Positions 14,777-64,000 of a DNA stretch of 64,000 nt are shown piece by piece. Source of the stretch: Aptenodytes patagonicus. Its lineage: Eukaryota; Chordata; Aves; Sphenisciformes; Spheniscidae. The stretch lies in the NCBI RefSeq assembly GCF_965638725.1, contig NC_134955.1, forward strand, positions 70,840,732 to 70,904,731, given 5' to 3'. The position numbers and the translations under genes are program-made. How positions within the stretch are numbered: position 1 is the first letter of the stretch; every line of letters starts with the position of its first letter. Below the pieces are notes generated by a model, which saw only the letters and a program-made list of their open reading frames with translations, searched no databases and was not told the origin of the DNA.

Positions 14777-16600
<1,824 letters not shown>

Positions 16601-17334: not shown

Positions 17335-19796
17335 GTAGCGTCATCGGGTTTATGGCTCCTTGTTGTCTTCGGTCACTCCCTATAATTCAGATCAGTGAAA
17401 TTCAAGCTGTGGCCAACCACTTGGGAAACGCAGCGTTCACATACCTGGCCACAGTCCTCGCCTGCCTTCCCTGGGAGCAGTGCCCCAACACGCCCTGCAT
17501 GATGCAGAGCAGCACCCTCTGCACGTACATCGCACACACGCGTTTGGCCAGTTTCACAGGCACGACGTGTCGCAACCCTGCGCTCCCAGTGATGTGCCAG
17601 CGAGGCCAGTACACGTAAGCGGTATGAGGCTGGTCCTCCAGGCCTGGCATGCTGGAGCAGGGGGGGCTGCCTGCCCTGCAGGCCCTGTGGGGAGGAAGGC
17701 GAGGGGAAAGCAAGCTTGTGTTGGTAGTTGCTTCTGAGCTGATGGAGCAGACGTGGGAAGTGGCATCCAGAACACAAAACCAGCAAAATGTGCTGTGGTC
17801 ACTTTGGGGTCGGCCTTCTGGACTGCACAGCTCTTGGAGAGCGCAGGCGTGCTTTCACTTGGGATTGCGTGTGTAAGCCTGACTTCACCATATCCTTCTA
17901 GCCCTTCAAAAATACCAAATTTTGAGTTAATTTTTACGGCAGGCATTTTTGCAATTACGTGGCACATGCAAAGCAATCCCCCTTGGAACAGCAAAAGGGA
18001 AATTGTTTGGTGTCTAAAGTCTGGGAGAATGGGAGATTTCCTAGACTACAGATTTATTAAGGGGATGACAATAAGAGTTTACGAGGAAGCCTTGCTCTTT
18101 CATGCAGCGAGCAAAGAGGGAGGATGCCAAGGAAAACATACCATCCGCGGTCTCTCCTAATGAGTGCGTGCAGGCTGCACCGGGGGTACAGTCTGCTGAC
18201 ACCAGGGCTCACGAGTGTCCCTGTATGCATCAGGCAGTGCCAGAGCTCATACTCTGGTGTTTAAAGCAGCAGATAATACTGCTAAGTACTGTACTGGCAT
18301 GGGATTTACAGCAAGCTGTGGTGATCCCGCTGGGTACAGCCAGTTCAGTCTCATCTCACTAGCATGGGAAATTTATCTAAATAGAGTTTACTGCTGAGCA
18401 GGGCTAAAATTAACGTCAGGATGTGGACATTAGTGGGTTTCTACTTGGCTCCGTTCCGTGTGACCATTTCCGTGCTGGTAAACACGAGCGGCAGTTTATT
18501 AAATTAGGCAGCATTAGTACGACACCATGGGTCTTGACCAAAATAGTTGGGAAAGAAGATGTCAGGAGCTGCCTTTGTCCCTGTGCAGGTATCGATTGCT
18601 CTACTCGCTGGCCTCAGAGCAGCATTTTCTGGTTTCAGGAAATGACTGCCTTGTTAGCGTTTTTGTTCTGACTGCGTAAAGCATTAAGGGGAGGGTGCGA
18701 CCGTACGTGAGGTTTTTCTGCTTTTCTTTTTTTAACGGTTGAGAGTTACCTTTGGTGCTTTCTCCTGGGATCCACCAGTTGAGGAACACGGATCTCAAGC
18801 ATTAAGCATGTCAGCACCCGGCAGCCAGCACAGCCGGTGAAACACCGAATGGCGTCTGGGACGCTTGTCTGTCTGGGCTGCGGGAGGGGATGGCTGTGCT
18901 GCGGCGCTGTGCCACCCGCCGGTGGGTACCACGAGGCACAAACCAAAATGAGTAACTGCAGAGTGGGGAAGTGCCTTTTCTATCATCTTCTCCCTCTGTT
19001 TTGCACCCAGACGTATACTGTTCCTTGGGTCTCTCGTCTTGAATCATGGCTTTTTTAGGTTTGTTGGTGACTGCATTGTCCCTCATCCTTGGGGACTGTC
19101 TGTGGATGGGGCTTGGCCAGCTTTGGCTTTGCCCACTTCACCTGGCAAACAGCTGGGCTCTTCTGTTTTTCCTGAGCTCCTTCTCTCCTTTCCCTCCTGG
19201 TAAACTGGAAGTGATGGGACCTGTGAAATACTTGCGTGCATGCCAAGGCGGGGAGTTGCTTTCAGGGAGACGGCAGCTGCTCTTGCACTGGAGCCGTTGA
19301 GGAGCTGATCTCCATGCAACGGGGCCTTCCGCTGACTAAGCGGCAGGGCCACTTCCTGAGCTGCTCCTCTCCCCGCAGGGTTCCTGCGTGCCCGCGCTTG
19401 ATACCGGCAAACGAGAGGGTGCTCCAATCTGTACTATCCCTTTGCCAGCATGGGCCCGCTCCTTTCCTGGTGCGTGCCCTACCCTGGGTGGGCCTGTGGC
19501 CGAGATGAGCCATGCTGCTCCAGGCTGTGGTTGGCAGCTCCTGCTCAACTGCTTTTGCCCCACGGGTCTTTGAGCCTTTAGCAGCTGCGTGTCCTGTCCC
19601 TCGGCAGGCTGGGCACCCCCATAGCTCCCTGAGCTCTCCCACTGCTGCCTCTGCTGCTCATCAGCGCTTTTCAGCTTGGACCAGCCCTGAGCTGGAGCAC
19701 GGTGCTGTATTCTTCAGCTGCCACTGTGTGACCTGCTGAAAGTGTCCAAAGTTGATCTTGCCATCATCCAAGTCTAAAAACCTGACAAAAAGAAGG
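17335..19796. other. Gene-free spacer between CR1 copies
   Basis: No known gene or RNA was recognised. A minus-strand frame of 103 codons at 17402-17713 has a non-repetitive composition, but I cannot relate it to any family. The rest is ordinary intergenic DNA lying between the ARF6 CpG island and the first large CR1. Confidence 0.5.
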
Positions 19797-21246
19797 CCCC
19801 AGCTGACTGGAGGTTAGCAAATGTGATGCCCATCTACAAGAAGGGCCGGAAGGAGGATCCGGGGAACTACAGGCCTGTCAGTCTGACCTCGGTGCTGGGG
19901 AAGGTTATGGAGCAGATTATCCTGAGTGCCATCACGCGGCACGTGCAGGACAACCAGGTGATCAGGCCCACTCAGCATGGGTTTATGAAAGGCAGGTCCT
20001 GCTTGACTCACCTGATCTCCTTCTATGATAAGGTGACCTGCTTAGTGGATGTGGGAAAGGCTGTGGATGTGGTCTGCCTAGACCTTAGTAAAGCCTTTGA
20101 CACCGTCTCCCACAGCATTCTCCTGGAGAAACTGGCTGCTCGTGGCTTGGACGGGTGTACATTTTGCTGGGTAAAAAACTGGCTGGACGGCCGGGCCCAG
20201 AGAGTTGTGGTGAATGGAGTTACATCCAGTTGGCGGCCGGTCACAAGCGGTGTTCCCCAGGGCTCAGTTTTGGGGCCGGTCTTGTTCAATATCTTTATCG
20301 ATGATCTGGATGAGGGGATCGAGTGCACCCTCAGTAAGTTTGCAGACGACACCAAGTTGGGCGGGAGTGTTGATCTGCTCGAGGGTAGGAAGGCTCTGCA
20401 GAGGGACCTGGACAGGCTGGATCGATGGGCCCAGGCCAACTGGATGAGGTTCAACAAGGCCAAGTGCCGGGTCCTGCCCTTCGGCCACAACAACCCCATG
20501 TAACGCTACAGGCTTGGGGAAGAGTGGCTGGAAAGCTGCCTGGCGGAAAAGGACCTGGGGGTCAACCAAGAGGTTGACCAGCAGCTGAACATGAGCCGGC
20601 AGTGTGCCCAGGCGGCCAAGGAGGCCAATGGCATCCTGGCCTGTATCAGAAATCGTGTGGCCAGCAGGAGTAGGGGAGTGATCGTGCCCCTGTACTCGGC
20701 CCTGGTGAGGCCGCACCTCGAATACTGTGTTCAGTTTTGGGCCCCTCACTACAAGAAGGACGTCGAGGTGCTGGAGCATGTCCAGAGAAGGGCAACGAGG
20801 CTGGTGAGGGGTCTGGAGAAGAAGTCTGATGAGGAGCGTCTGAGGGAGCTGGGGTTGTTTAGCCTGGAGAAAAGGAGGCTGAGGGGAGACCTCATCGCTC
20901 TCTACAACTCCCTGAAAGGAGGTTGTAGCGAGGTGGGGGTCGGTCCCTTCTCCCAAGTAACAAGCGATAGGACGAGAGGAAACGGCCTCCGGTTGCGCCA
21001 GGGGAGGTTTGCGCCAGGTTTAAATTGCATATTAGGAAAAATTTCTTGACCGAAAGGGTTGTCAAGCACTGGAATGGGCTGCCCAGGGAAGTGGCGGAGT
21101 CCCCATCCCTGGAGGTATTTAAAAGACGTGTAGATGTGGCACTTAGGGACATGGTTTAGTGGTGGGCTTGGCGGTGTTAGGTTAACAGTTGGACTCAATG
21201 ATCTTAAAGGTCTTTTCCAACCTAAACAATTCTATGATTCTATGAT
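19797..21246 (+). mobile_element. CR1 LINE, 5'-truncated, broken ORF2
   Basis: This non-LTR retrotransposon copy retains most of the reverse transcriptase region and the C-terminus of ORF2. Visible motifs include [37 protein letters not shown], and the catalytic FADD box (FADDTKLGG). The frame is broken by a TAA at 20501-20503, where the better copy at 23.3-24.8 kb has a Gln codon. An 11-nt duplication near 21004-21020 then shifts the frame before the C-terminus. The element ends with two ATTCTATG units (21229-21244), the CR1 hallmark tail. The 5' truncation is typical of CR1 insertion. It cannot be autonomous. Confidence 0.95.
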
Positions 21247-23267: not shown

Positions 23268-24800
23268 ATCATAGAATCATAGAATCATTGAGGTTGGAAA
23301 AGACCTCTAAGATCATCAAGTCCAACCGTCGACCCAACACCCCCATGCCCACTAAACCATGTCCCTAAGTGCCTCATCTACACGTCTTTTAAATACCTCC
23401 AGGGATGGGGACTCAACCACTGCCCTGGGCAGCCTGTTCCAATGTTTCACCACTCTTTCAGTAAAGACATTTTTCCTCACGTCCAATCTAAACCTCCCCT
23501 GGCACAACTTGAGGCCATTTCCTCTCGTCCTATCGCTTGTTACTTGGGAGAAGAGACCGACCCCCACCTCGCTACAACCTCCTTTCAGGGAGTTGTAGAG
23601 AGCGATGAGGTCTCCCCTCAGCCTCCTCTTCTCCAGGCTAAACGGCCCCAGTTCCCTCAGCCGCTCCTCAGAAGACTTGTTCTCCAGACCCCTCACCAGC
23701 CTCGTTGCCCTTCTCTGGACACGCTCCAGCACCTCGACGTCCTTCTTGTAGTGAGGGGCCCAAAACTGAACACAGTGTTCGAGGTGCGGCCTCACCAGGG
23801 CCGAGTACAGGGGCACAATCACTTCCCTGCTCCTGCTGGCCACACTATTTCTGATCCAGGCCAGGATGCCATTGGCCTTCTTGGCCACCTGGGCACACTG
23901 CCGGCTCATGTTCAGCTGGCTGTCAACCAGCACCCCCAGGTCCTTTTCCGCCAGGCAGCTTTCCAGCCCCTCTTCCCCAAGCCTGTAGCGCTGCATGGGG
24001 TTGTTGTGGCCCAAGTGCAGGACCCGGCACTTGGCCTTGTTGAACCTCATACAGTTGGCCTGGACCCATCGATCCAGCCTGTCCAGGTCCCTCTGCAGAG
24101 CCTTCCTACCCTCCAGCAGATCAACACTCCCGCCCAACTTGGTGTCGTCTGCAAACTGACTGAGGGTGCACTCAATCCCCTCATCCAGATCATCGATAAA
24201 GATATTGAACAAGACCGGCCCCAAAACTGAGCCCTGGGGAACACCGCTCGTGACCGGCCGCCAACTGGATGTAACTCCATTCACCACAACTCTCTGGGCC
24301 CGGCCGTCCAGCCAGTTTTTTACCCAGCGAAGAGTACGCCCGTCCAAGCCATGAGCAGCCAGTTTCTCCGAGAGAATGCTGTGGGAGACGGTGTCAAAGG
24401 CCTTACTGAAGTCCAGGTAGACCACATCCACAGCCTTTCCCTCATCCACTCGGCGGGTCACCTGGTCATAGAAGGAGATCAGGTTGGTCAAGCAGGACCT
24501 GCCTCTCATGAACCCGTGCTGGCTGGGCCTGATCCCCTGGTTGTCCCGCACATGCCTTGTGAGCGCCCTCAAGATGAACCGCTCCATCATCTTCCCCGGC
24601 ACCGAGGTCAGACTGACAGGCCTGTAGTTCCCCGGATCCTCCTTCCGGCCCTTCTTGTGGATGGGCGTCACATTGGCAAGCCTCCAGTCGTCCGGGACCT
24701 CCCCGGTTAGCCAGGACTGCTGATAAATGATGGAAAGCGGCTTGGCGAGCACCTCCGCCAGCTCCCTCAGCACTCTCGGGAGATCCTTGGGCTCTTCCCA
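23268..24800 (-). mobile_element. CR1 LINE, 5'-truncated, well preserved
   Basis: A second CR1 copy, inverted with respect to the first. Its 3' terminus is the octamer tail (ATTCTATG repeats, seen on the plus strand as CATAGAAT at 23270-23287). The body from 24773 to 23352 is open without interruption, and the 5' end is truncated within ORF2 upstream of the reverse transcriptase. Good preservation suggests a comparatively recent insertion. The element lies in the ARF6-NEMF spacer and interrupts nothing visible. Confidence 0.95.
23352..24773 (-). CDS. CR1 ORF2 fragment: reverse transcriptase and C-terminus
   Basis: The frame has 473 codons and covers the reverse transcriptase and C-terminal region of CR1 ORF2. 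In order it shows an upstream RT segment ([12 protein letters not shown]), [12 protein letters not shown], the first catalytic block [29 protein letters not shown], the FADD catalytic box, and a C-terminal tail ending in ALRDMV. The N-terminal endonuclease domain is absent because the insertion is 5'-truncated, so the annotated Met is internal and not a natural start. No stop or frameshift is seen. It is transposon-derived and should not be annotated as a host gene. Confidence 0.9.
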
Positions 24801-27800
24801 TAAGGTCCATGTAACAGCATTGGGGAAGGAGTAGAGGTGGTAAGGGGGTGTTGTATTCTGACTGCAGCAGATTTCTGTTAGCCTGTGTGTGTGCTGAAAT
24901 GGTGTAATGAGGACCCTGAAGAATCGCTAGAAATCCCACATTTCTCTTCAGGAGAAAACCCTGTCGTGGTCTCCCCGGAATTCCTCCAGCCTCCTGTGGG
25001 AGTGGGGCAGAGCTCTTCCAAAGAGGCCTCCCGGCAGGAAAAACAGTTTGCCCTCCAGGCTGTTTGGGTTCTTTTTGTATCTTAAGTACATCGAAATGCC
25101 TTTGCAGTTACTATTGGCAAAAAAGCTGGCTTCTCCCTTCACAGGTTATTTTCAGGACCAGACAGAGGAAATGTAGGTGGGGGATACTGCCTGACCAAAT
25201 TTCCATATGCCGAAATCCTGAATCACCACCATGACAATATCGGCCTAAAAAATCATGAAGCCTTAACAAGAGTAAAAATAATTTGTGAGGCTTTTCCTTC
25301 CCTCTCTGATTTTCGCATTTTCACATCCCGTATTGCCCAGCAGCAACAAAGCAGGAGATACACCAGTGACCTCCGGGACTCAGCTGGATGTGCTGGCTGA
25401 CCCCATGGAGACCTGCACCCCGAGGTTTTTGGACCCCAAGCCAGGCCATTGCTGATGCCCGGATGTTTTGAGCCATCCTGGCATCTTGTAAAGCATGGCA
25501 GTGACGCAGGGATGCCCGAGAAGCTCAGGGTGGGGATGCTTTGCAGTCAGTGCTGCGGGCCGGCAGGAATCTGCTGTATTCTGCACCCACACTCTAATGC
25601 AGAGGGTTTTTTGCAGGCAGTTCCCAAGGGCTTTTTTCCTGTAAGGTGTGTTTTAGTTGTCATTCAAAGGGTCTCTGGTTCCCAGACACAGTGCGAGCAT
25701 TGCCTGGCCCTCGTGAGGGGTGGAGGTTTGGAGCTCAGTGGGATCCCAAAGCCGGTTCTTTGGGAGGCTGGAGCCCAGCTTACCCGTAACGCTTTGCACA
25801 AAGCCGCAGCTCCTGCGCGTGGGGGAGCTCAGCAGGAGCCTGGAGCAGTTGCTCCTGCTGAGCAAGATGTGGCGACCGGCTGTCGGATGAGCACCATGAG
25901 GCAGAGCTGCCCCTGAGCTCCAAACTGAGCAACTGAGGTTTCCCCAGCTCTGAGCGGCCTCATTTTTTATTCTAGGTGTTGCTTTGGCAGCTGGGAGCCA
26001 CACCAGGGCACACCTCTGTGCTAGCGGGCTGGCACTGCTGTCAGGACTCTCTATCTGTGTCCTGGCTGTGCAATGTCCCTCCTCAGTCTGCCAAGCTCGT
26101 TCCCATCAGATTTTCTCAGGCAAACCAGGTAGTTTCATGTCCCTGCTGTCTTGATTCACTCCTGCTATGTTTTTTCATGTGATGAAAAATTTTAGTATAG
26201 GAAGAAATAGTCCCCATGTTACTGGTAGGAGGAGGGGACGGGAGAGGGATGCCCAGCCCTGCATTAAGTGTTATTTCTGTTCAGACGCCTTGCCTTTCTC
26301 CCCTGTTTGTGGATGTTAAGCCTACATCTCCTCATGCCCATGACCCCTAAGTCATTATCCTAATGCCTTTAACCAAAACTCCAGCTGTCACTGACAGCTC
26401 TTCCTTAAGTAGATAATAGGAGCCCAGAACAAGATGTCTCTCTCTCCCGTGCAGCCTGACACCCTTAAGGACTTCAGGCTCGTGCAGCACTGGGGGAAGA
26501 TCTTATTTGTCTTTTCTGAGATGGGATTGCCGTGTGCGTACTTTAGCCCTGGACTTTGCTCCGCTAACTTGGGTCAGGTAGTCTGGAAGAAATGCTTAGA
26601 CACCTCCTGAGTGGCTGCTGCTGGGTCTGGCCTTGGGTAGGAGGCGTGCCTGTGCCTTGAGGAGGAGGTATGTCCGTGCCTGGAACAGAAGCACATCCGT
26701 GCTTGGGCAGGAGGTACACCCGTGCCTTGACCTCTGCACTTAAGAAATGCAATGCAAAGACGCCATCCTTTGGTGCCTTTAGCCCTTTGGTCAGGGCTAA
26801 GCTGGCTGCAGGCTGACTCTGTGCACAGCATCAGCGACAGCCTTGGTGGGGAGAGCCTGGAGGGGGTCCAGCGGAGGCGGAGGCAGCAGCAGGAGGCTCT
26901 GGCTGGGCTGGCAGGGCTCTCTGGCAGTGTTTGCGATCTCAGCAGCTGGTTCTGCTCTCCTCCCGGCTGGTGTGGAGTCAGGGATGGTTGCTGCCCTCGG
27001 AGGTGGTCTGCATGGCTTTCGTGGATAAACACGACAGTCTCAGGACCCTTGCTCTACTGTGCATATTTGCACCCACCAGAGATTCCCCAGGCTAGTGCTC
27101 GGTGTGTCTGAAGAAATAACGTGTATCTGGAGAGGGGGGAAAAAAGGCCGTTTTGGCAATGGCAGTGTGTGGTTTGGGATCAGCTTTGGCTCGCTCTGCT
27201 AGGAAAGGGGCAGTGCAGTCTACACTTCTGCATTAGAGCAAAGGCTGCCTCAGCTATCTGAGCATGTTGGCTCTCAGCTTTCCTTGCAGCCCCAGGTCTC
27301 CATGGAGCCAGAGAGAGGTGAGGGGCCTGCAGCATCCCCAGCCCCGGCCAGCTGCAGAGTTACTCTCACGGGATGTCTGGGGGAGCTCTCTTGGACAGGC
27401 CTCCGCGAGAGGCAAAACACACAGTGAAGATCTCGAATACTCTGTGAAAGTATTTCTAGGCAGCTGTCTATTGCAGCAGTGAATGGATCAAGGCAAGAAG
27501 CTCCTGCATTTTGTTCCTTGCATTATGTTTTTGTTACTTTTATATCCTTCTCTGAGAATCAAAACACTTCATTACATCTGTGAGTATTCAATACAGCAAG
27601 TAGGTTGCCTCTTCAACTCTCTTCAGCAAATCCTTCTGAGCTCTCACTGGACGTCCTAGAGCAGGACCATGAACTTAATTTTTTGGCCTACAACAGCTTA
27701 ACTTGGCCTTTCTGAAGCAAAGTATTGTGTTGAATCTTCACTTGAAGAGCTAAATTTTGCTTCCTGTATTTGATGCTCCTTCTCCCCCATGTTCCCACCG

Positions 27801-27911: not shown

Positions 27912-28212
27912 GCCGGGCACGGTGGCTTGTGCCTGTAATCCAAGCGCCGGGGAGGCTGAGGCTGGTGGACGGCTTGAGCCCGGGGGTTCTGGGCTGCAGC
28001 GAGCTGTGCCGAGTGGGCGTCCGCGCTAAGGCCGGCATCGATATGGTGGTCCTCGGGGAGCCGCGGACCACCAGGTCGCTTAAGGAGGGGTGAACCGGCC
28101 CAGGTCGGAGACGGAGCAGGTCAAAGCTCCCGTGCCGGTCAGTAGCGGGATGGCGCCTGTGAACAGTCCCTGTAGCACAGCCTGGGCAAGAGAGCGGGAC
28201 CCAGCCTCTTTT
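27912..28212 (+). ncRNA. RN7SL: 7SL RNA (SRP RNA), copy 1
   Basis: This is a full-length, about 300-nt SRP RNA gene, made by RNA polymerase III. It begins GCCGGGCACGGTGGC, as 7SL genes do, and ends in TTTT (28209-28212), the Pol III stop. The S domain is intact: helix 6 closes GGTGGTCC with GGACCACC around a GGAG loop (SRP19 site), and helix 8 carries GGTCG-GAGA-CGG plus AGCAGG, the SRP54-binding part. The Alu domain departs from the human form: TGTAATCCAAGCGCCGGGG replaces TGTAGTCCCAGCTACTCGGG, but the hairpin can still form. GAGGCTGG (27958-27965) pairs perfectly with CCAGCCTC (28201-28208). It is about 93% identical to copy 2 by eye. Open frames running through it are not protein genes. 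Confidence 0.95.
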
Positions 28213-29061
28213 GGCTTCTTTCCCCTGCACGACCCTGCGCTTGTCAGCTGTCTGTGCCGGGGGGCAATCACAAAAGGGTCAAGTAATACTGGGGAAAGGC
28301 AAAAGCATCTCCCACAGATGTTGGACCTGAAGACGCTGCCCCGGCCTTGCTCACTCAGGTGTGCTCATGTTTTGGTGGCGCGTGTTGCGATTTCTTGCAG
28401 CGGTGAAAGGCCACAATGCAGGACCCAGACAGACCTTTGGGATCCCAATAGCTGTAACTACTAAAATGGGAAATGACGGGCAGCAGACTTTCCCATCGTG
28501 TTTCTGGCTCGGAGGCCCTGCACACCTGCGAGTCAGTAAGCATCCCTCATACACTGCGGGCTTTGGCAGCCCGCTCCAGGCCGAGACGGGGCTCCAGCTC
28601 CCAGGAGCGTCTCATTAGTCTGCTCCATCGGGTATTTACTGTCACAGCTCATTTGCGTCCTCGGCTCTGAGCTTTACACTCTTAGGAAAACACTGGCGAA
28701 TCAAGGAGCTTGTCTCTGTGAGGAGTATTTCAAAGCGGGGAGTGGGACATCTCTTATCTGCTCTTCAGTAAATGAAGGGTACTGAGCTGTCCTGGAGATA
28801 GAGCTCCCTGATGCGCCTCACTTGGCTTAAAATGAAAATAGAGCATCATGATGTGCCTCTTCTGGCTCAAAACGAGAAGTCTGGGCTTTCTCAGCTGCTC
28901 AAACCTGCTTGTGCTCAGAAATCTGTCTATCCATCCACCCATTTTTAAACATAAAATACAAGCAGCCCAAGGACATTCTCTCAGTTCCCCACTGCCACTG
29001 TGTGGCCAGGCAGAGCCCCCACAAGACGGATGTCGAGGAATCTGCAAAAGCCTGAAAAACA
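28213..29061. other. Spacer between 7SL copies 1 and 2
   Basis: No gene is seen. The flanks just outside copies 1 and 2 do not resemble each other, so the duplication is old or only the transcribed part is kept alike. Two diverged short repeats built on GATGNGCCTC and GGCTNAAAA occur near 28811 and 28850. Confidence 0.55.
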
Positions 29062-29363
29062 GCCGGGCACGGTGGCTTGTGCCTGTAATCCAAGCGCCGG
29101 GGAGGCTGAGGCTGGCGGACGGCTTGAGCCTGGGGGTTCTGGGCTGCAGCGAGCTGTGCTGAGCGGGCGTCCGCGCTAAGTTCAGCATCGATATGGTGGT
29201 CCTGGGGGAGCCGGGGGCCACCAGGTCGCCTAAGGAGGGGTGAACCGGCCCAGGTCGGAGACGGAGCAGGTCAAAACTCCTGTGCTGATCAGTAGCGGGA
29301 TCGCGCCTGTGAACAGTCCCTGTAGCACAGCCCGGGCGAGAGAGCGGGACCCAGTTTCCTTTT
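29062..29363 (+). ncRNA. RN7SL: 7SL RNA (SRP RNA), copy 2
   Basis: A second full-length 7SL gene, 302 bp from GCCGGGCACGG to the TTTT stop at 29360-29363. It shares the variant Alu-domain hairpin of copy 1. Its helix 5 differs: GTTCAGCAT (29180-29188) with GTGCTGATC (29282-29290), where copies 1 and 3 have a G/C-rich version, and both halves changed together. The 3' end CCAGTTTC (29351-29358) still pairs with GAGGCTGG (29108-29115) through two G-U pairs. Helix 6 retains a GGAG loop, and the helix 8 core is identical in all three copies. The pattern fits a functional gene more than a pseudogene. Expression cannot be judged from sequence. Confidence 0.94.
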
Positions 29364-29856
29364 GCTTGGGGAACGGGGCAGCGAGGTATTGGGATGTGTT
29401 AATGCTGAGGCGTGAGCAGCACTGACACACCGGGGAATCCCAGCCAGGACAGGGGAGCAGCGACCGCATCTCACGGGGGGGTTTCTCCAGGGGAAGGAAG
29501 AGGAACAGAGGGAAAAAAAATGAGGTGTCTTTAAACAAGGAGGGAGAGTGCCCAGAAACACTCTTTTAAAGAAATTCCTTCATCAGAGATGCCCCCGATC
29601 CTCCGCTGGCCCCCAGCTAGATCCCACCGCGAGGCACTGGCAGCAACCCCCGAATCACGTAAGAAACAACGAACTGGGGTTTGTGCTGAGGAGGTGCCAG
29701 CTGCCCTGCAAGGGGCTCCCCTTCCTCGACCGGCTCAGAGCCCAGCTGCCTCCTCAGCCGGTACGACGCGAGTACGTTCAGGGGGGCCGGGGAAGGGACC
29801 GAGGGGGTCCCCGGGCGGCCTGACGGCAGTAGAGGCGGCAGCGCGGGGCGATCGGC
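29364..29856. other. Spacer between 7SL copies 2 and 3
   Basis: No gene is seen. The right part becomes CpG-rich as the NEMF promoter island begins. A TGACG motif at 29821-29825 lies about 36 bp before 7SL copy 3; human 7SL uses an upstream ATF/CRE site at a broadly similar distance, so this is a weak candidate promoter element. Confidence 0.5.
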
Positions 29857-30158
29857 GCCGGGCGCGGTGGCGCGCGCCTGTAGTCCCAGCTACTCGGGAG
29901 GCCGAGCCCGCCGGATCGCTTGAGCCCAGGAGTTCTGGGCTGCAGTGCGCTATGCCGAGCGGGCGTCCGCGCTAAGGCCGGCATCAATATGGTGAGCCCC
30001 GGGGAGCCGGGGGACACCAGGTTGACTAAGGAGGGGTGAACCGGCCCAGGTCGGAGACGGAGCAGGTCAAAGCTCCCGTGCCGGTCAGTAGCGGGATCGC
30101 GCCTGTGAATAGCCACTGCAGCGTAGCCTGGGCAACACAGAGAGACGCGGGCTCCTTT
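29857..30158 (+). ncRNA. RN7SL: 7SL RNA (SRP RNA), copy 3, human-like Alu domain
   Basis: The third 7SL gene, 302 bp from GCCGGGCGCGG to TTTT at 30155-30158. Its 5' half is closest to human 7SL: GTAGTCCCAGCTACTCGGG is kept exactly, as is the ATAGCCACTGCA block near the 3' end. The terminal stem has changed on both sides: GAGCCCGC (29904-29911) pairs perfectly with GCGGGCTC (30147-30154), whereas human and the other copies use different bases. Helix 5 uses GGCCGGCAT with GTGCCGGTC, as in copy 1. The helix 8 core is unchanged. It differs clearly from copies 1 and 2, so the cluster holds two 7SL classes. It lies immediately upstream of NEMF. Confidence 0.95.
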
Positions 30159-30430
30159 TGCGCCGACCCCCGCCCGCCTTTTGCCCCCCGCCCACCCCGC
30201 GCCCTACCGCCTCCTGCCGGCGCCCTACCGCCTCCTGCCGGCCCGCGGCGGCGGCGACGCGGCCGCTTAGCCCGCAGCCTCCCCCCCCCCCAAGCCCGGC
30301 CCCGCGGCTCGGCGCATGCGCGGGTAGGCGGCGGGCGCGCGGCGGCGGAGCGGAGAGAATTGGCGCGGGGCGCGACCCGTAGCGGGCGCAGGCGCGGGGC
30401 GCGCGGCGGGGAGCGCCGTCGGTCGGAGCC

Positions 30431-55112
<24,682 letters not shown>

Positions 55113-59800: not shown

Positions 59801-62800
59801 TTGCTGATACAATAAATCCAAGCATCACCTGAAAACAAGCAAAACCCCAAATACAAACAGTATTCTGTTAGTTCTTTCACATTTGCTGCAATACACATGT
59901 ACTCTCGTGTAGCACAGTCCATTTTTGTTCTTAAATAAATCAATTTTTTTCAGGAAAAACCCTATGAAACTTTGGGCTGTCTATTTGAAGACAGGCGTTT
60001 AACAATGGTTTATAGGAGTGAAGTCAGAAGGGAAAGATGGAGAACTGTAAAGCTCTTCCCAATTGCAATTTGCATTAGATACATTTTTAGAGCAGATTAA
60101 TTTCTGTAAATAGTCGTCTCTCAACACACTCGGCGACTCCTACTCTGTGAAATTAGCTGTTGACCATAAGGAGTTGGATCACAAGTGCATGGAAGGAATT
60201 TAGAAATAATTTAAGGTGACTAGGCAATAATTCAAGCTTCTGTGCACAACTGTTCAAGAACATAAAGACAACACAAAATCCTTTCGGAATGACTTACTTA
60301 ATGGCTGCTTGTCAGTGGTGAATCCTCCAAAGAGAAAGAGGTGATCTGAGGAAATTGGTGTTAAAGAATGCCACGATCGGCCAACTGGGCAAATGCCTTG
60401 CGTGATTCTGTATTTCAATAAAAGCACCGTAAATTACACACGCGCTACAATAAAATACCGCTGCTCTTTTCTGCTCTGATTTTTTTTCAGATATTTGAAG
60501 GATGCAGCTTCATACTGCGCACGGCTCACGACCCAACAGCAAGTTTAGTTTCTTTAAACACAGTAAGAGAGTTTTACTCGTGTCAATACTTAAAAAAGCC
60601 TGACAGCAAGAGTCAGCAACTGATCAGGAGGATCAGTTCTACTCGAGTTTACTTACTTGCTGGAGTTTACCAAGTTTCACTAGAATGATCAGAAGTGAAT
60701 AAAACCGGCATCTTCGTATTGCTTTACAAACAAAAGAACTCAAGTTTTAGTACCTACATTTCATTCCACTCCCACGTATCCAAATTCAGATAGTAAAGAT
60801 CGTTCATTCTGGACTCCTACAATAAAGCAGACCGTGGTTGAAACACTCCGTTTAGGTTTCAGTAACACATCGTTAAACTGGGCTGGGGCTTACTCTGTAT
60901 CTGCCACCGAACACGTAGCCTCTGTTCCCAACTGTAGCACAGGCGTGAGCTGCTCGTGGTGACGGAGTTTTACCCTGGGAAAAGACAATGCGAAATAAGA
61001 AGGTAAGTTTATCTGATACATTAACAAAAGAAAGAAAATGCCACTTCACCAGAAACCTGCAGTAGATCAAGCAAAGAGGAGCTGGGCTGAAGACGCCCAT
61101 CACACACAGGAAGCAGCACGGCTGTGGCCACACCAGGCACCCTGGGAGGCGCGGTGGGACCGCAGACACGGTGGGGCAGGGGCCGGGCCCCTCTCAGGCC
61201 TCCCAGGAGAGCTCACCTGGACGCCGCACTCAAGGCAAAGCAAGGCCTCAGTTCCACAAATCAGTCACCCAAGATGAAAGGCTGAACTAAAGTCAGATTT
61301 AAGGCCAACAAGGAACAGAGAGTGAAAAAACATCCAGTGAGTCATTCTGTGTGCAGGAACTTGCTTTTTTTGATGGATGGAAGATCGGAAAACTCATTAA
61401 AAACAGGATTTTTTTTCCCCCCTCTTTAAGTGTCAAGGTATAAATTTTGCTTTTAGAAGAGGGTCCAGACAGTGACAGAAGACTTCAGACTGCAAATGAG
61501 ACAATGACGTAATAAATCATTAAACAGTATTTTTCTTGAGTTACTTCTGAAATATCTGAGATCTGTATGCAGTAAGACAAAGCAACTCTTTGGTAATCTG
61601 AATACGGAGTTACTTATCTCAGATTTCATTTCCTCCAATTCTGTGGCAGTATCACTCCATTTGCCTGTTCCTGAGTACTTCTGGAACACTTCAAATGGTG
61701 TATATTTGCAATTACAGAGTGTTTCGTTTTGTTTTGACCACAATTCAGCACCCAAGTGAAACATTCCAAACCATCACATTACAGTGAGGATGACAGGAAA
61801 CCATACATTTCGTTTTCCTGAGCTCCCCATGAGCACAATGCCACTGAAGCATGAAAGAAAGCAAGTCAACGGGAAAAAAGATGAAGAGAGAAAGACAGAT
61901 CAAAATAAAAGGCAAGCTTCCCGTTTTTGGAGAGGAGAGAGGACCTAGGTAAATGAATGGTTTAAATTCAGTTTAAATGGCCTCAAGAACGCTACTGAAC
62001 AGGCAGCAGGCAATTTTTATTTTGAGGGGATGTTTCCAAGGCTAGTTCTACCAACAGTGTTTCAAACCCCTCTCTTAATGGTCCTTCCCCTACAAGCATG
62101 TTGTGGGTAAGACTGCAAACACAAGCTAATGACACCTCACGGAGTCCATATATAGGAGAGAAATTAACAGTCCCCCTTCGCTGGCAAGACAGCAAGGTAC
62201 AGGGAATTAAGACAGCTCGCTCAGGAAACGCGAGAGGGGAAGAGAGCCCTGGTCACATAGTCCTAAGCTTTAGCTCCTGGCCAGGTTTCCTCCCCGGGTC
62301 GGATCAGACAGACTGCGTGTCCCAGGAGGGAAGCCAGAACAGCAGAAAGCAGCAGTGCTGCAGACGCAGTGCTTCCCGCCAGCCACAGCTAGGGCGAGCG
62401 GCCTGTGAGTCATCCCATGGAGAAAACAAACTTAGCGAGCACCACTGAGACAAGATCAGCTCCACACGGTCCGTTGGTGGAGTCCCAGTCTCGTGACCCT
62501 GCAAGGCACTTCTCACGTCCTCCTGCTAGCTAGCACTAGGTATTTCAGAGAGCTCTTCCACCTTTTCTAACTCCTGGCATTCAGGGACTGGTTTATGTCC
62601 CGAAAGAGGCAGGATCACAGAGCACCTGACAACTAAACACTTGGCAGTTAACTTGGCACGGTGACATGTGAACAAGGCTGCAGGGTGGAGCAGGAAAGGA
62701 GAAATATGTATTTTGGGTGAACATGCTTCTTGCTTGCAAACAGTTAACCACATCTTCTAAAATAACGCCAGGGAGATACAGACTAGAGATAGGACCCCCC

Positions 62801-63356
62801 CATGAGATACAACAGGTTAAGACAGCTTCACACTGCAAGTTCTCCAAGCACACAGCCAGGCACTCAGAACATCTGCAGCCCAAAGCCACTGCTGCTGGGA
62901 CAGGCCACTACTAACCTGCACAGCCACGCAAGGAGGCCATTTTATCAGCACCACCTTCTGCCTTGACACAAATTAAAGCAGTGAACCCAGGCCTAGCAGA
63001 GTCATGCTTATTTTCACAGAATGCTACAAGAGATATGGCACACAGTGCACATATTTCTTAAGAGCTGTAACTTAAAACAACTGACGTAAGACTAATAATT
63101 ACCGTAGTTACAGGCTGGCTCCAAGTAAAAGTTTCAGTGTCCAGAACATGCACGTGGTCATTCCACCCTCTAGGAAGACCTGAATTCTTTAAAAATATTA
63201 AATAAGCAACAGTTTTTAATAGGCACTAATTAAATATTAAAGTTTAAATAGAAATTACTTCCAGGTTTACTTACCCAAAAAGAGGTTTCATCAAATTCAA
63301 AAGTTCCCCGTTGTTTCCCTTCAGGAAAATAACCATAGCCTCCAAAAAATATTAGC
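56825..63356 (-). CDS. KLHDC2: KLHDC2, CUL2 E3 substrate receptor (last nine exons; 5' end off window)
   Basis: KLHDC2 is a kelch beta-propeller that recruits proteins ending in Gly-Gly-type C-degrons to CUL2-Elongin B/C. Exons in transcript order: 63356-63275, 63186-63103, 60974-60894, 60816-60758, 60407-60298, 59828-59756, 58608-58521, 57298-57246, 56948-56825. They total 754 nt in phase, giving the equivalent of human residues 157-406 plus TGA. Kelch repeats show as FFGGYGY, FVFGGRY-like YVFGGRYR, FLFGGFT and IVFGGCANN. Residues that line the human degron pocket are all present: Tyr163, Trp191, Arg236, Arg241, Ser269 and Trp270. Lys147 lies off the window. The last exon encodes the BC/Cul2-box region (LEAVICFKEML, LPKHLLHSV) and a tail ending NNTSGS as in human, which separates it from KLHDC1. 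It is partial only because the window ends. Confidence 0.96.
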
Positions 63357-64000
63357 CTGGAACAAAACATGCATCGAGAGCTATTAGAAATGCTAGCACA
63401 TCTGTTGCTACCAATTAAAGTTCTGTAAAGGCTGTGCTCAAACGGAAGACAGGAAAACCAGGGAAGCTCCTTTGGCTTCATTACTTCCAATACGTCTACA
63501 ATGCAAGTTTTCCAGGTGTGGGGCCCTGTTTCTTGCCTAATCGACCCTACCACCCACATTAAATCCCTCTGTAGCTGTTTCCCAGGCCTCAGGCTTCCAA
63601 GCTTTGCTCCGGTTCCAAATGTGTGAGGCTACCAGGCCTGCTGCCTGATTGCTGCGCTTGAGCCTTTGCTATCGGAGCTCCCACACAGCAGCTACAGGTG
63701 TTTATTCCTGCAGTTTCCTGCCTCCACCCTTTCCAAGCCCTCTGCCCATTTTCCCTGAGCCCAAAATGTTCACAGACACCCCTGTAAGAAGCAAAGGGAA
63801 AGCACTACAACCTGGGCACGATCGCTGTGGAGTTGTGTGCTAGGCGAGGCAGGGCAGGAGGACACCAAGGGATGCTACATGCGGCAGACCCTCTACCAAT
63901 GAAGCTGCCTGGGAAGTTTTTAGTTTTGGGGGAGGAAGACGTTTTCCTTTGTACTTGCTGCATTTTGTTTCAAAGCCTGAAGAACAGTTACTGTGAGCAG
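63357..64000 (-). other. KLHDC2: KLHDC2 intron at the right edge
   Basis: The next upstream exon should encode the segment ending in Lys156, but nothing matching it is visible up to position 64000. The stretch is therefore intronic, and the remaining 5' exons lie beyond the window. Confidence 0.7.

What the first reader, a model, noticed from the sequence alone, without database searches (positions are those of the whole stretch)
27912..30158. Three 7SL genes differ by compensatory changes in two helices
Between copies, both sides of a helix changed together. Helix 5: copy 1 pairs GGCCGGCAT (28030-28038) with GTGCCGGTC (28132-28140); copy 2 pairs GTTCAGCAT (29180-29188) with GTGCTGATC (29282-29290). 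Terminal Alu-domain stem: copy 1 GAGGCTGG/CCAGCCTC, copy 2 GAGGCTGG/CCAGTTTC (two G-U pairs), copy 3 GAGCCCGC/GCGGGCTC. Such paired substitutions are not expected in decaying pseudogenes. They suggest three maintained SRP RNA genes with distinct sequence classes.
Basis: partly seen in the sequence, partly recalled or inferred. Interest (0 to 1): 0.75.

Follow-up and report, generated by a model that had tools for sequence, protein, structure and literature searches.

The report
SRP RNA genes beside NEMF
The window holds three copies of the gene for the RNA core of the signal recognition particle, part of an ordinary four-copy set; two of them form a divergent class whose folded shape was preserved in the past, but nothing here shows that those two are used today.

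Summary
All three copies are full-length Metazoa_SRP RNAs: 254.3, 250.4 and 263.4 bits, gathering score 70. Helix letters and coordinates are right. The copy-2 change in the terminal stem is one-sided; copy 3 there shows true double changes.

A fourth copy lies 136 kb away, head-to-head with RPS29 and 100% identical to copy 3. So there are two classes, not three: copies 1+2, and copies 3+4. Copy 4 has the CRE and Sp1 layout described for mammalian 7SL genes; copies 1 and 2 have neither site and no convincing TATA-like box.

On the shared branch of copies 1+2, 30 changes cost 2 pairs and gained 4, far better than neutral decay. After they separated, constraint is weakly supported for copy 2 and not detectable for copy 1. 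One of copy 2's two helix-5 double changes is CpG-type on both sides.

Published bird annotation gives a median of 3 SRP RNA loci, and 4 in chicken, 2 of them RNA-seq-supported (PMC4378963). An ordinary gene set; current use of copies 1 and 2 is open.

The parts
27912..28210 (+). SRP RNA (7SL) copy 1, divergent class
   Evidence: RF00017 254.3 bits, model 1-299; 105 of 120 model pairs standard; TTTT at the 3' end; no CRE, Sp1 or convincing TATA-like box upstream
29062..29360 (+). SRP RNA (7SL) copy 2, divergent class
   Evidence: RF00017 250.4 bits, model 1-299; 105 of 120 model pairs standard; 93.0% identical to copy 1; TTTT at the 3' end; no CRE or Sp1 upstream, best TATA-like match has 3 of 8 mismatches
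29857..30156 (+). SRP RNA (7SL) copy 3, canonical class, 100% identical to the fourth copy at C7:71006765-71007064 (-)
   Evidence: RF00017 263.4 bits; 102 of 120 model pairs standard; identical to copy 4 from 43 bases upstream to 86 bases downstream of the RNA
28030..28038 (+). helix 5, 5' side, copy 1 (partner 28132-28140)
   Evidence: letters and pairing confirmed
29180..29188 (+). helix 5, 5' side, copy 2 (partner 29282-29290); two double changes plus one U-U mismatch relative to copies 1 and 3
29904..29911 (+). terminal stem, 5' side, copy 3 (partner 30147-30154); three pairs changed on both sides relative to copy 1
   Evidence: pairs 51/295, 53/293, 55/291
14777..15304 (-). ARF6-like single-exon reading frame (synteny marker)
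   Evidence: ORF; Pfam Arf 5.3e-80 for 14780-15310; the name ARF6 is recalled
30431..33868 (+). 5' part of a NEMF-like gene (synteny marker): probable start codon 274 bases past the end of copy 3, NFACT_N exon at 33734-33868
   Evidence: ATG at 30431, first exon recognised as NEMF-like from memory only; PF05833 match at C7:70874465-70874599, E 1.2e-4, 30.2 bits against a cut-off of 31

Best explanation
This is the vertebrate SRP RNA gene set at its usual NEMF/RPS29 locus. Copies 3 and 4 are the canonical genes, one in front of NEMF and one head-to-head with RPS29; gene conversion, or a recent copying event, keeps them identical. Copies 1 and 2 descend from an older duplicate that evolved for a long time under selection on RNA structure and so collected paired substitutions, together with changes in the Alu-domain loop. 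They kept the SRP54- and SRP19-contact sequences (roles recalled) and a Pol III terminator, but no upstream promoter element is recognisable. The double changes record that past constraint. Shown: the four loci, the pairing statistics, the promoter difference, the identity of copies 3 and 4. Inferred: that copies 3 and 4 supply most SRP RNA, and that copies 1 and 2 are now weakly transcribed, silent or redundant.
For: Covariance scores and four full-length copies on one contig. Copy 4 is head-to-head with RPS29, whose start codon lies 240 bases from the RNA start, and has CRE TGACGTCG at -50..-43 and Sp1 CCGCCC at -66..-61, the layout described for mammalian 7SL genes (PMC7279448, passages seen). 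The stem branch of copies 1+2 has 30 changes (one a deletion), 3 double changes, 2 pairs lost and 4 gained; P of so good a net pairing is 0.0004 or less at all three CpG settings. Pseudogene control: 18 pairs lost in 42 paired changes against 2 in 21 on the stem (p = 0.009) and 5 in 39 on stem plus terminals (p = 0.003). Flanks of copies 1 and 2 do not align although the RNA bodies are 93% identical. Published annotation: median 3 SRP RNA loci in 48 birds, 4 in chicken, 2 of those 4 supported by RNA-seq (PMC4378963).
Against: Copy 3 itself lacks the -50 CRE, so absence of that element does not prove silence. The 3 double changes on the stem branch are by themselves not significant under fast CpG (P 0.007, 0.07, 0.19). 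Copy 2 has 2 double changes on its own branch (P 0.002, 0.010, 0.028), which hints at constraint after the split, and the terminal branches together lose fewer pairs than pseudogenes (3 in 18 against 18 in 42, p = 0.076). Promoter criteria come from mammals. PMC4378963 itself concludes that the majority of its bird annotations are functional. No expression data or other bird genome could be examined here.
Confidence: 0.6

Rival explanations
1. One reading: copies 1 and 2 are maintained, expressed SRP RNA genes, forming a second class beside copies 3 and 4 and working from internal promoter boxes or another upstream element.
For: Near-full covariance scores; conserved helix 8 sequence CCCAGGTCGGAGACGGAGCAGG, GGGGAGCC tip and the Alu CCTGTAATCC motif in both copies; TTTT terminators; 2 double changes on the copy 2 branch; 0 net pairs lost between copies 1 and 2.
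Against: No CRE or Sp1 and no convincing TATA-like box upstream. The copy 1 branch has 1 loss and no double change in 8 changes, not distinguishable from neutral (P of so few losses 0.08, 0.16, 0.21). Copy 2 has a U-U and a G-G mismatch of its own (121/229, 144/153). The loop at positions 31-39 changed at five places, one a deletion, in both copies.
Confidence: 0.25
2. Copies 1 and 2 are plain pseudogenes (retrocopies or dead duplicates) and the double changes are CpG decay plus inheritance from a functional source.
For: Homology between copies 1 and 2 stops at the RNA ends to within a few bases, as retrocopies would show. On the copy 2 branch 5 of 13 changes are CpG-type transitions, including both halves of pair 124/226. 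No recognisable external promoter.
Against: No other gene of their class is among the genome matches to act as a source (lists that the tool calls lower bounds). Both lie on the same strand within 2 kb of copy 3, with TTTT at the end and no A-tail seen by eye. Their stem branch preserves pairing far better than neutral simulation or real pseudogene fragments.
Confidence: 0.1
3. The helix-5 difference is not a change in copy 2: copy 2 keeps an older, human-like helix, and gene conversion carried the copy 3 type into copy 1 on both strands of the helix.
For: Copy 2 matches recalled human 7SL at 5 of its 13 unique sites (121, 122, 216, 226, 228); published 7SL primers cover positions 121, 122, 216 and 226. 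No site where copies 1 and 2 agree against copy 3 lies at 97-129 or 170-253 to contradict conversion tracts there.
Against: Needs two separate tracts, since copy 1 is copy-2-like at several sites in 130-169. All 4 of the 5 pseudogene fragments that cover 121 and 122 carry the copy 1/3 letters. If only sites known to vary are free to change, 5 or more coincidences with human are expected by chance (P 0.44 to 0.48); if all sites are equally free, P is 0.002 to 0.011.
Confidence: 0.05

Closest known systems
Metazoan SRP RNA (Rfam RF00017), human RN7SL1, RN7SL2, RN7SL3
   Same: Full-length match, conserved SRP54 and SRP19 contact sequences (roles recalled), TTTT terminator, location between ARF6-like and NEMF-like genes and beside RPS29 (human order recalled). 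Copy 4 has the -50 CRE and Sp1 of mammalian 7SL genes.
   Different: Copies 1 and 2 are only 84.3% and 82.3% identical to copy 3, whereas the human genes are near identical to each other (recalled). Copies 1 and 2 have an altered Alu loop and no recognisable external promoter.
SRP RNA loci annotated in 48 avian genomes (Gardner et al. 2015, PMC4378963)
   Same: Median 3 loci per bird and 4 in chicken, as here; 2 of the 4 chicken loci supported by RNA-seq (Table 1).
   Different: The passages and the part of the Results seen do not describe sequence classes, gene order or paired changes of SRP RNA; the rest of the paper and its supplement were not read.

Membership tests
Metazoa_SRP (RF00017) | Covariance score above the gathering score over the whole model | tested here: met
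   3 of 3 copies in the window, 250.4 to 263.4 bits, gathering score 70, model 1-299; fourth copy 263.4
Metazoa_SRP (RF00017) | Conserved protein-contact sequences (helix 8 internal loop and tetraloop, helix 6 tip, Alu U-turn; roles recalled) | tested here: met
   Present in 3 of 3 window copies; the loop at 31-39 is altered and one base shorter in copies 1 and 2
Functional 7SL Pol III gene (mammalian type) | CRE/ATF site near -50 | tested here: not met
   Not met in copies 1, 2 and 3; met in copy 4 (TGACGTCG at -50..-43). Copy 3 keeps a TGACG at -36..-32
Functional 7SL Pol III gene (mammalian type) | TATA-like box near -31/-24 (mammalian CTCTAGTA) | tested here: inconclusive
   Copies 3 and 4 share AGTA at -29..-26 (best match 3 of 8 mismatches); copy 2 also reaches 3 of 8 mismatches, copy 1 only 4
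Functional 7SL Pol III gene (mammalian type) | TTTT terminator at the RNA 3' end | tested here: met
   4 of 4 copies
Functional 7SL Pol III gene (mammalian type) | Internal boxes A and B | not tested
   Not scored in any call
Functional 7SL Pol III gene (mammalian type) | Transcription and assembly into SRP | not testable with these tools
   No RNA or ChIP data are held

The most novel reading that the evidence does not exclude
Copies 1 and 2 encode a second, long-maintained class of SRP RNA with a remodelled Alu-domain loop and a different promoter, used in a particular tissue or stage beside the canonical class of copies 3 and 4.
Probability: 0.15. Interest if true: 0.6.

Novelty: new member of a known kind. 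Interest (0 to 1): 0.27.

Why it matters
SRP RNA is usually homogeneous within a vertebrate genome (recalled). Here two classes about 16-18% apart sit side by side, with measurable traces of selection on pairing, and a CRE-bearing copy beside RPS29 makes the promoter question testable. If the divergent class proved to be used, it would be a rare case of SRP RNA specialisation in a vertebrate. If not, it is a clear example that paired differences between paralogues show past, not present, constraint.

Tried and rejected
Relatives elsewhere: the conserved S-domain pattern was scanned in viral contigs and genome contigs and gave 0 matches in each, so no other vertebrate 7SL was fetched.

Retroposition as origin of copies 1 and 2: considered because homology stops at the RNA ends, and set at 0.1 because no source gene of their class is among the matches and no A-tail is seen. 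Target-site duplications were looked for by eye only.

Relaxed constraint argued from the domain of the changes (S domain 5 of 30 on the stem branch against 13 of 21 on the two terminal branches): not used, because the recalled human branch also puts 15 of 24 changes in the S domain.

Papers: six search listings gave nothing used; passages of PMC10854548 and PMC4233971 were seen and not used. PMC7279448 came and holds no mention of birds or chicken. The search for RN7SL with NEMF and RPS29 found 0 papers.

Limits: genome matches are lower bounds, as the tool says. Pairing counts use the Rfam consensus structure as aligned by cmscan; a few model pairs are non-standard in all copies. Pair changes in pseudogene fragments were counted against copy 3 and only where both sides were covered; 2 of the 5 fragments (C69, C34) cover no pair and contribute nothing. 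The first count (24 lost in 56) included poorly aligned tails; the count over positions 1-215 gave 18 in 42, and p for the terminal branches rose from 0.053 to 0.076. The ancestral letters of the branch analysis rest on parsimony with a recalled human sequence; one tie (position 295) gives copy 2 13 changes and 14. The short NEMF stretch sent to Pfam began one base early and was out of frame, so its lack of a hit says nothing; two further stretches there (63230-63628, 49032-49418) also gave no family.

Full report
WHAT IS THERE. cmscan finds exactly three matches at gathering threshold in the window, all Metazoa_SRP (RF00017), all over model positions 1-299 and on the + strand: 27912-28210 (254.3 bits), 29062-29360 (250.4) and 29857-30156 (263.4), gathering score 70. 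In the whole assembly (1.35 Gb) the same model gives 6 matches: these three, a fourth full-length copy at C7:71006765-71007064 on the minus strand (263.4 bits), and two weak ones (45.2 and 37.0 bits) on C3 and C4. BLAST with copy 2 and copy 3 adds only fragments on C2, C69 and C34. The tool calls such counts lower bounds.

WHERE IT LIES. An ARF-family single-exon frame (ARF6 by recall) lies at 14777-15304 on the minus strand. The probable start codon of NEMF is at 30431, 274 bases past copy 3 (NEMF recognised from memory), and an NFACT_N exon is at 33734-33868 (E 1.2e-4, 30.2 bits, just under the family cut-off of 31). A weak KLHDC2-type kelch match is at 60873-61193 (23.6 bits, cut-off 50). 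The fourth copy is head-to-head with RPS29, whose start codon lies 240 bases from the RNA start. From memory, this is the gene order around human RN7SL2/RN7SL3 (ARF6, NEMF) and RN7SL1 (RPS29) on 14q21.3; no call tested the human order.

THE PAIRED CHANGES. Of 120 model pairs, 105, 105 and 102 are standard in copies 1, 2 and 3. Copies 1 and 2 differ by 21 substitutions, 18 in paired columns; copies 1 and 3 by 47; copies 2 and 3 by 53. Two pairs (122/228, 124/226) changed on both sides, but 121/229 is G-U in copies 1 and 3 and U-U in copy 2. In the terminal stem, copy 2 shows two one-sided G-C to G-U changes, and copy 3 shows three double changes relative to copy 1 (51/295, 53/293, 55/291). Over the whole RNA, double changes with pairing kept number 2 (copies 1-2), 7 (1-3) and 10 (2-3).

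IS IT MORE THAN CHANCE? Neutral substitution simulations (transition bias, CpG rates x1, x5, x10; 5000 runs each) were made on the same structure. Between copies 1 and 2, pair retention is better than neutral (2 lost against 6.8 to 8.6 expected; P 0.0008 to 0.015), but two or more double changes are not surprising if CpG sites are fast (P 0.018, 0.094, 0.21). With recalled human 7SL as outgroup: the stem branch of copies 1+2 carries 30 changes, one a deletion, with 3 double changes (P 0.007, 0.07, 0.19), 2 pairs lost and 4 gained (P for the net 0.0004 or less in all three settings). The copy 2 branch has 13 changes, 2 double (P 0.002, 0.010, 0.028) and 2 lost (P 0.04, 0.11, 0.18). The copy 1 branch has 8 changes, 0 double and 1 lost (P 0.08, 0.16, 0.21). 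The copy 3 branch has 11 changes, 2 double (P 0.0006, 0.006, 0.014) and 2 lost (P 0.09, 0.19, 0.25). An empirical control agrees: three pseudogene fragments of the same genome lost 18 pairs in 42 paired changes over positions 1-215, the stem branch 2 in 21 (p = 0.009), stem plus terminals 5 in 39 (p = 0.003), terminals alone 3 in 18 (p = 0.076), copy 3 2 in 10 (p = 0.28). So constraint on the class in the past is well supported; constraint on each copy since their split is suggestive for copy 2 and undetermined for copy 1.

CLASSES. There are two classes, not three. At the 40 columns where copy 3 alone differs, recalled human agrees with copy 3 at 26, with copies 1+2 at 10, and with neither at 4. 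Copies 1+2 are therefore the more derived class. Their shared changes include five in the loop at positions 31-39 (one a deletion), which contacts the other Alu loop (contact recalled). Copies 3 and 4 are identical through the RNA and for 43 bases upstream and 86 downstream, then differ in the number of units of a 21-base repeat: gene conversion or recent copying.

PROMOTERS. Mammalian 7SL genes carry a CRE at -51/-44, a TATA-like box at -31/-24 and in many cases Sp1 sites at -90/-52; changing the first two cut in-vitro transcription of the human gene 2.5-fold and four-fold (PMC7279448, passages seen). Copy 4 has CRE TGACGTCG at -50..-43 and Sp1 CCGCCC at -66..-61. Copy 3 shares only the first 43 bases, so it lacks that CRE, but has a TGACG at -36..-32, AGTA at -29..-26 and GGGCGG at -44..-39. 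Copies 1 and 2 have no CRE or Sp1 site in the 100 bases upstream; their best TATA-like matches have 4 and 3 of 8 mismatches, the latter no worse than copies 3 and 4. All four end in TTTT. The flanks of copies 1 and 2 align neither with each other nor with copy 3 beyond a few bases, although the bodies of copies 1 and 2 are 93% identical, so the bodies were kept alike by selection or conversion, or were copied without flanks.

HELIX 5 POLARITY. Copy 2's helix-5 letters resemble human (5 of its 13 unique sites; 4 of these 5 lie in published 7SL primers). In this genome all 4 fragments (of 5) that cover positions 121 and 122 carry the copy 1/3 letters. Convergence at fast sites is unremarkable (P 0.44 to 0.48 if only known variable sites are free; 0.002 to 0.011 if all are), but an older state kept in copy 2 is not excluded.

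KNOWN OR NEW. SRP RNA loci in birds are in print: median 3 in 48 genomes, 4 in chicken, 2 of 4 supported by RNA-seq (PMC4378963, passages, first part of the Results). Its authors conclude that most of their bird annotations are functional orthologues; which two chicken loci were supported was not seen. The listings showed no paper on SRP RNA classes in birds; this is absence from those searches only. I file the find as ordinary members of a known family, with one open and testable point: whether the divergent pair is used.

Noticed in passing
C7:71006765-71007064 (L002), 240 bases from the RPS29 start codon: Fourth SRP RNA copy, divergent (head-to-head) with RPS29, with a CRE between them that could serve both genes.
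   Followed up: partly
window 30199-30240; L002 about 1396-1458: A 21-base repeat just past copies 3 and 4, 2 units at copy 3 and 3 at copy 4; it marks one edge of the uninterrupted identical stretch.
   Followed up: no
L015 (C69:128401-128473): A 73-base fragment 97% identical to copy 3 positions 51-123, apparently a recent partial 7SL copy on another contig.
   Followed up: no
window 19778-21049 (+) and 23352-24926 (-): Two LINE reverse-transcriptase-like reading frames of CR1 type (type recalled; the first is a pair of adjoining frames not sent to Pfam); the second has RVT_1 at 6.8e-37.
   Followed up: no
L002 1751-1801 (-): Rfam mir-1268 matches the Alu domain of copy 4 below its gathering score (46.1 of 83 bits), probably because that microRNA family derives from Alu/7SL sequence (inference).
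   Followed up: no
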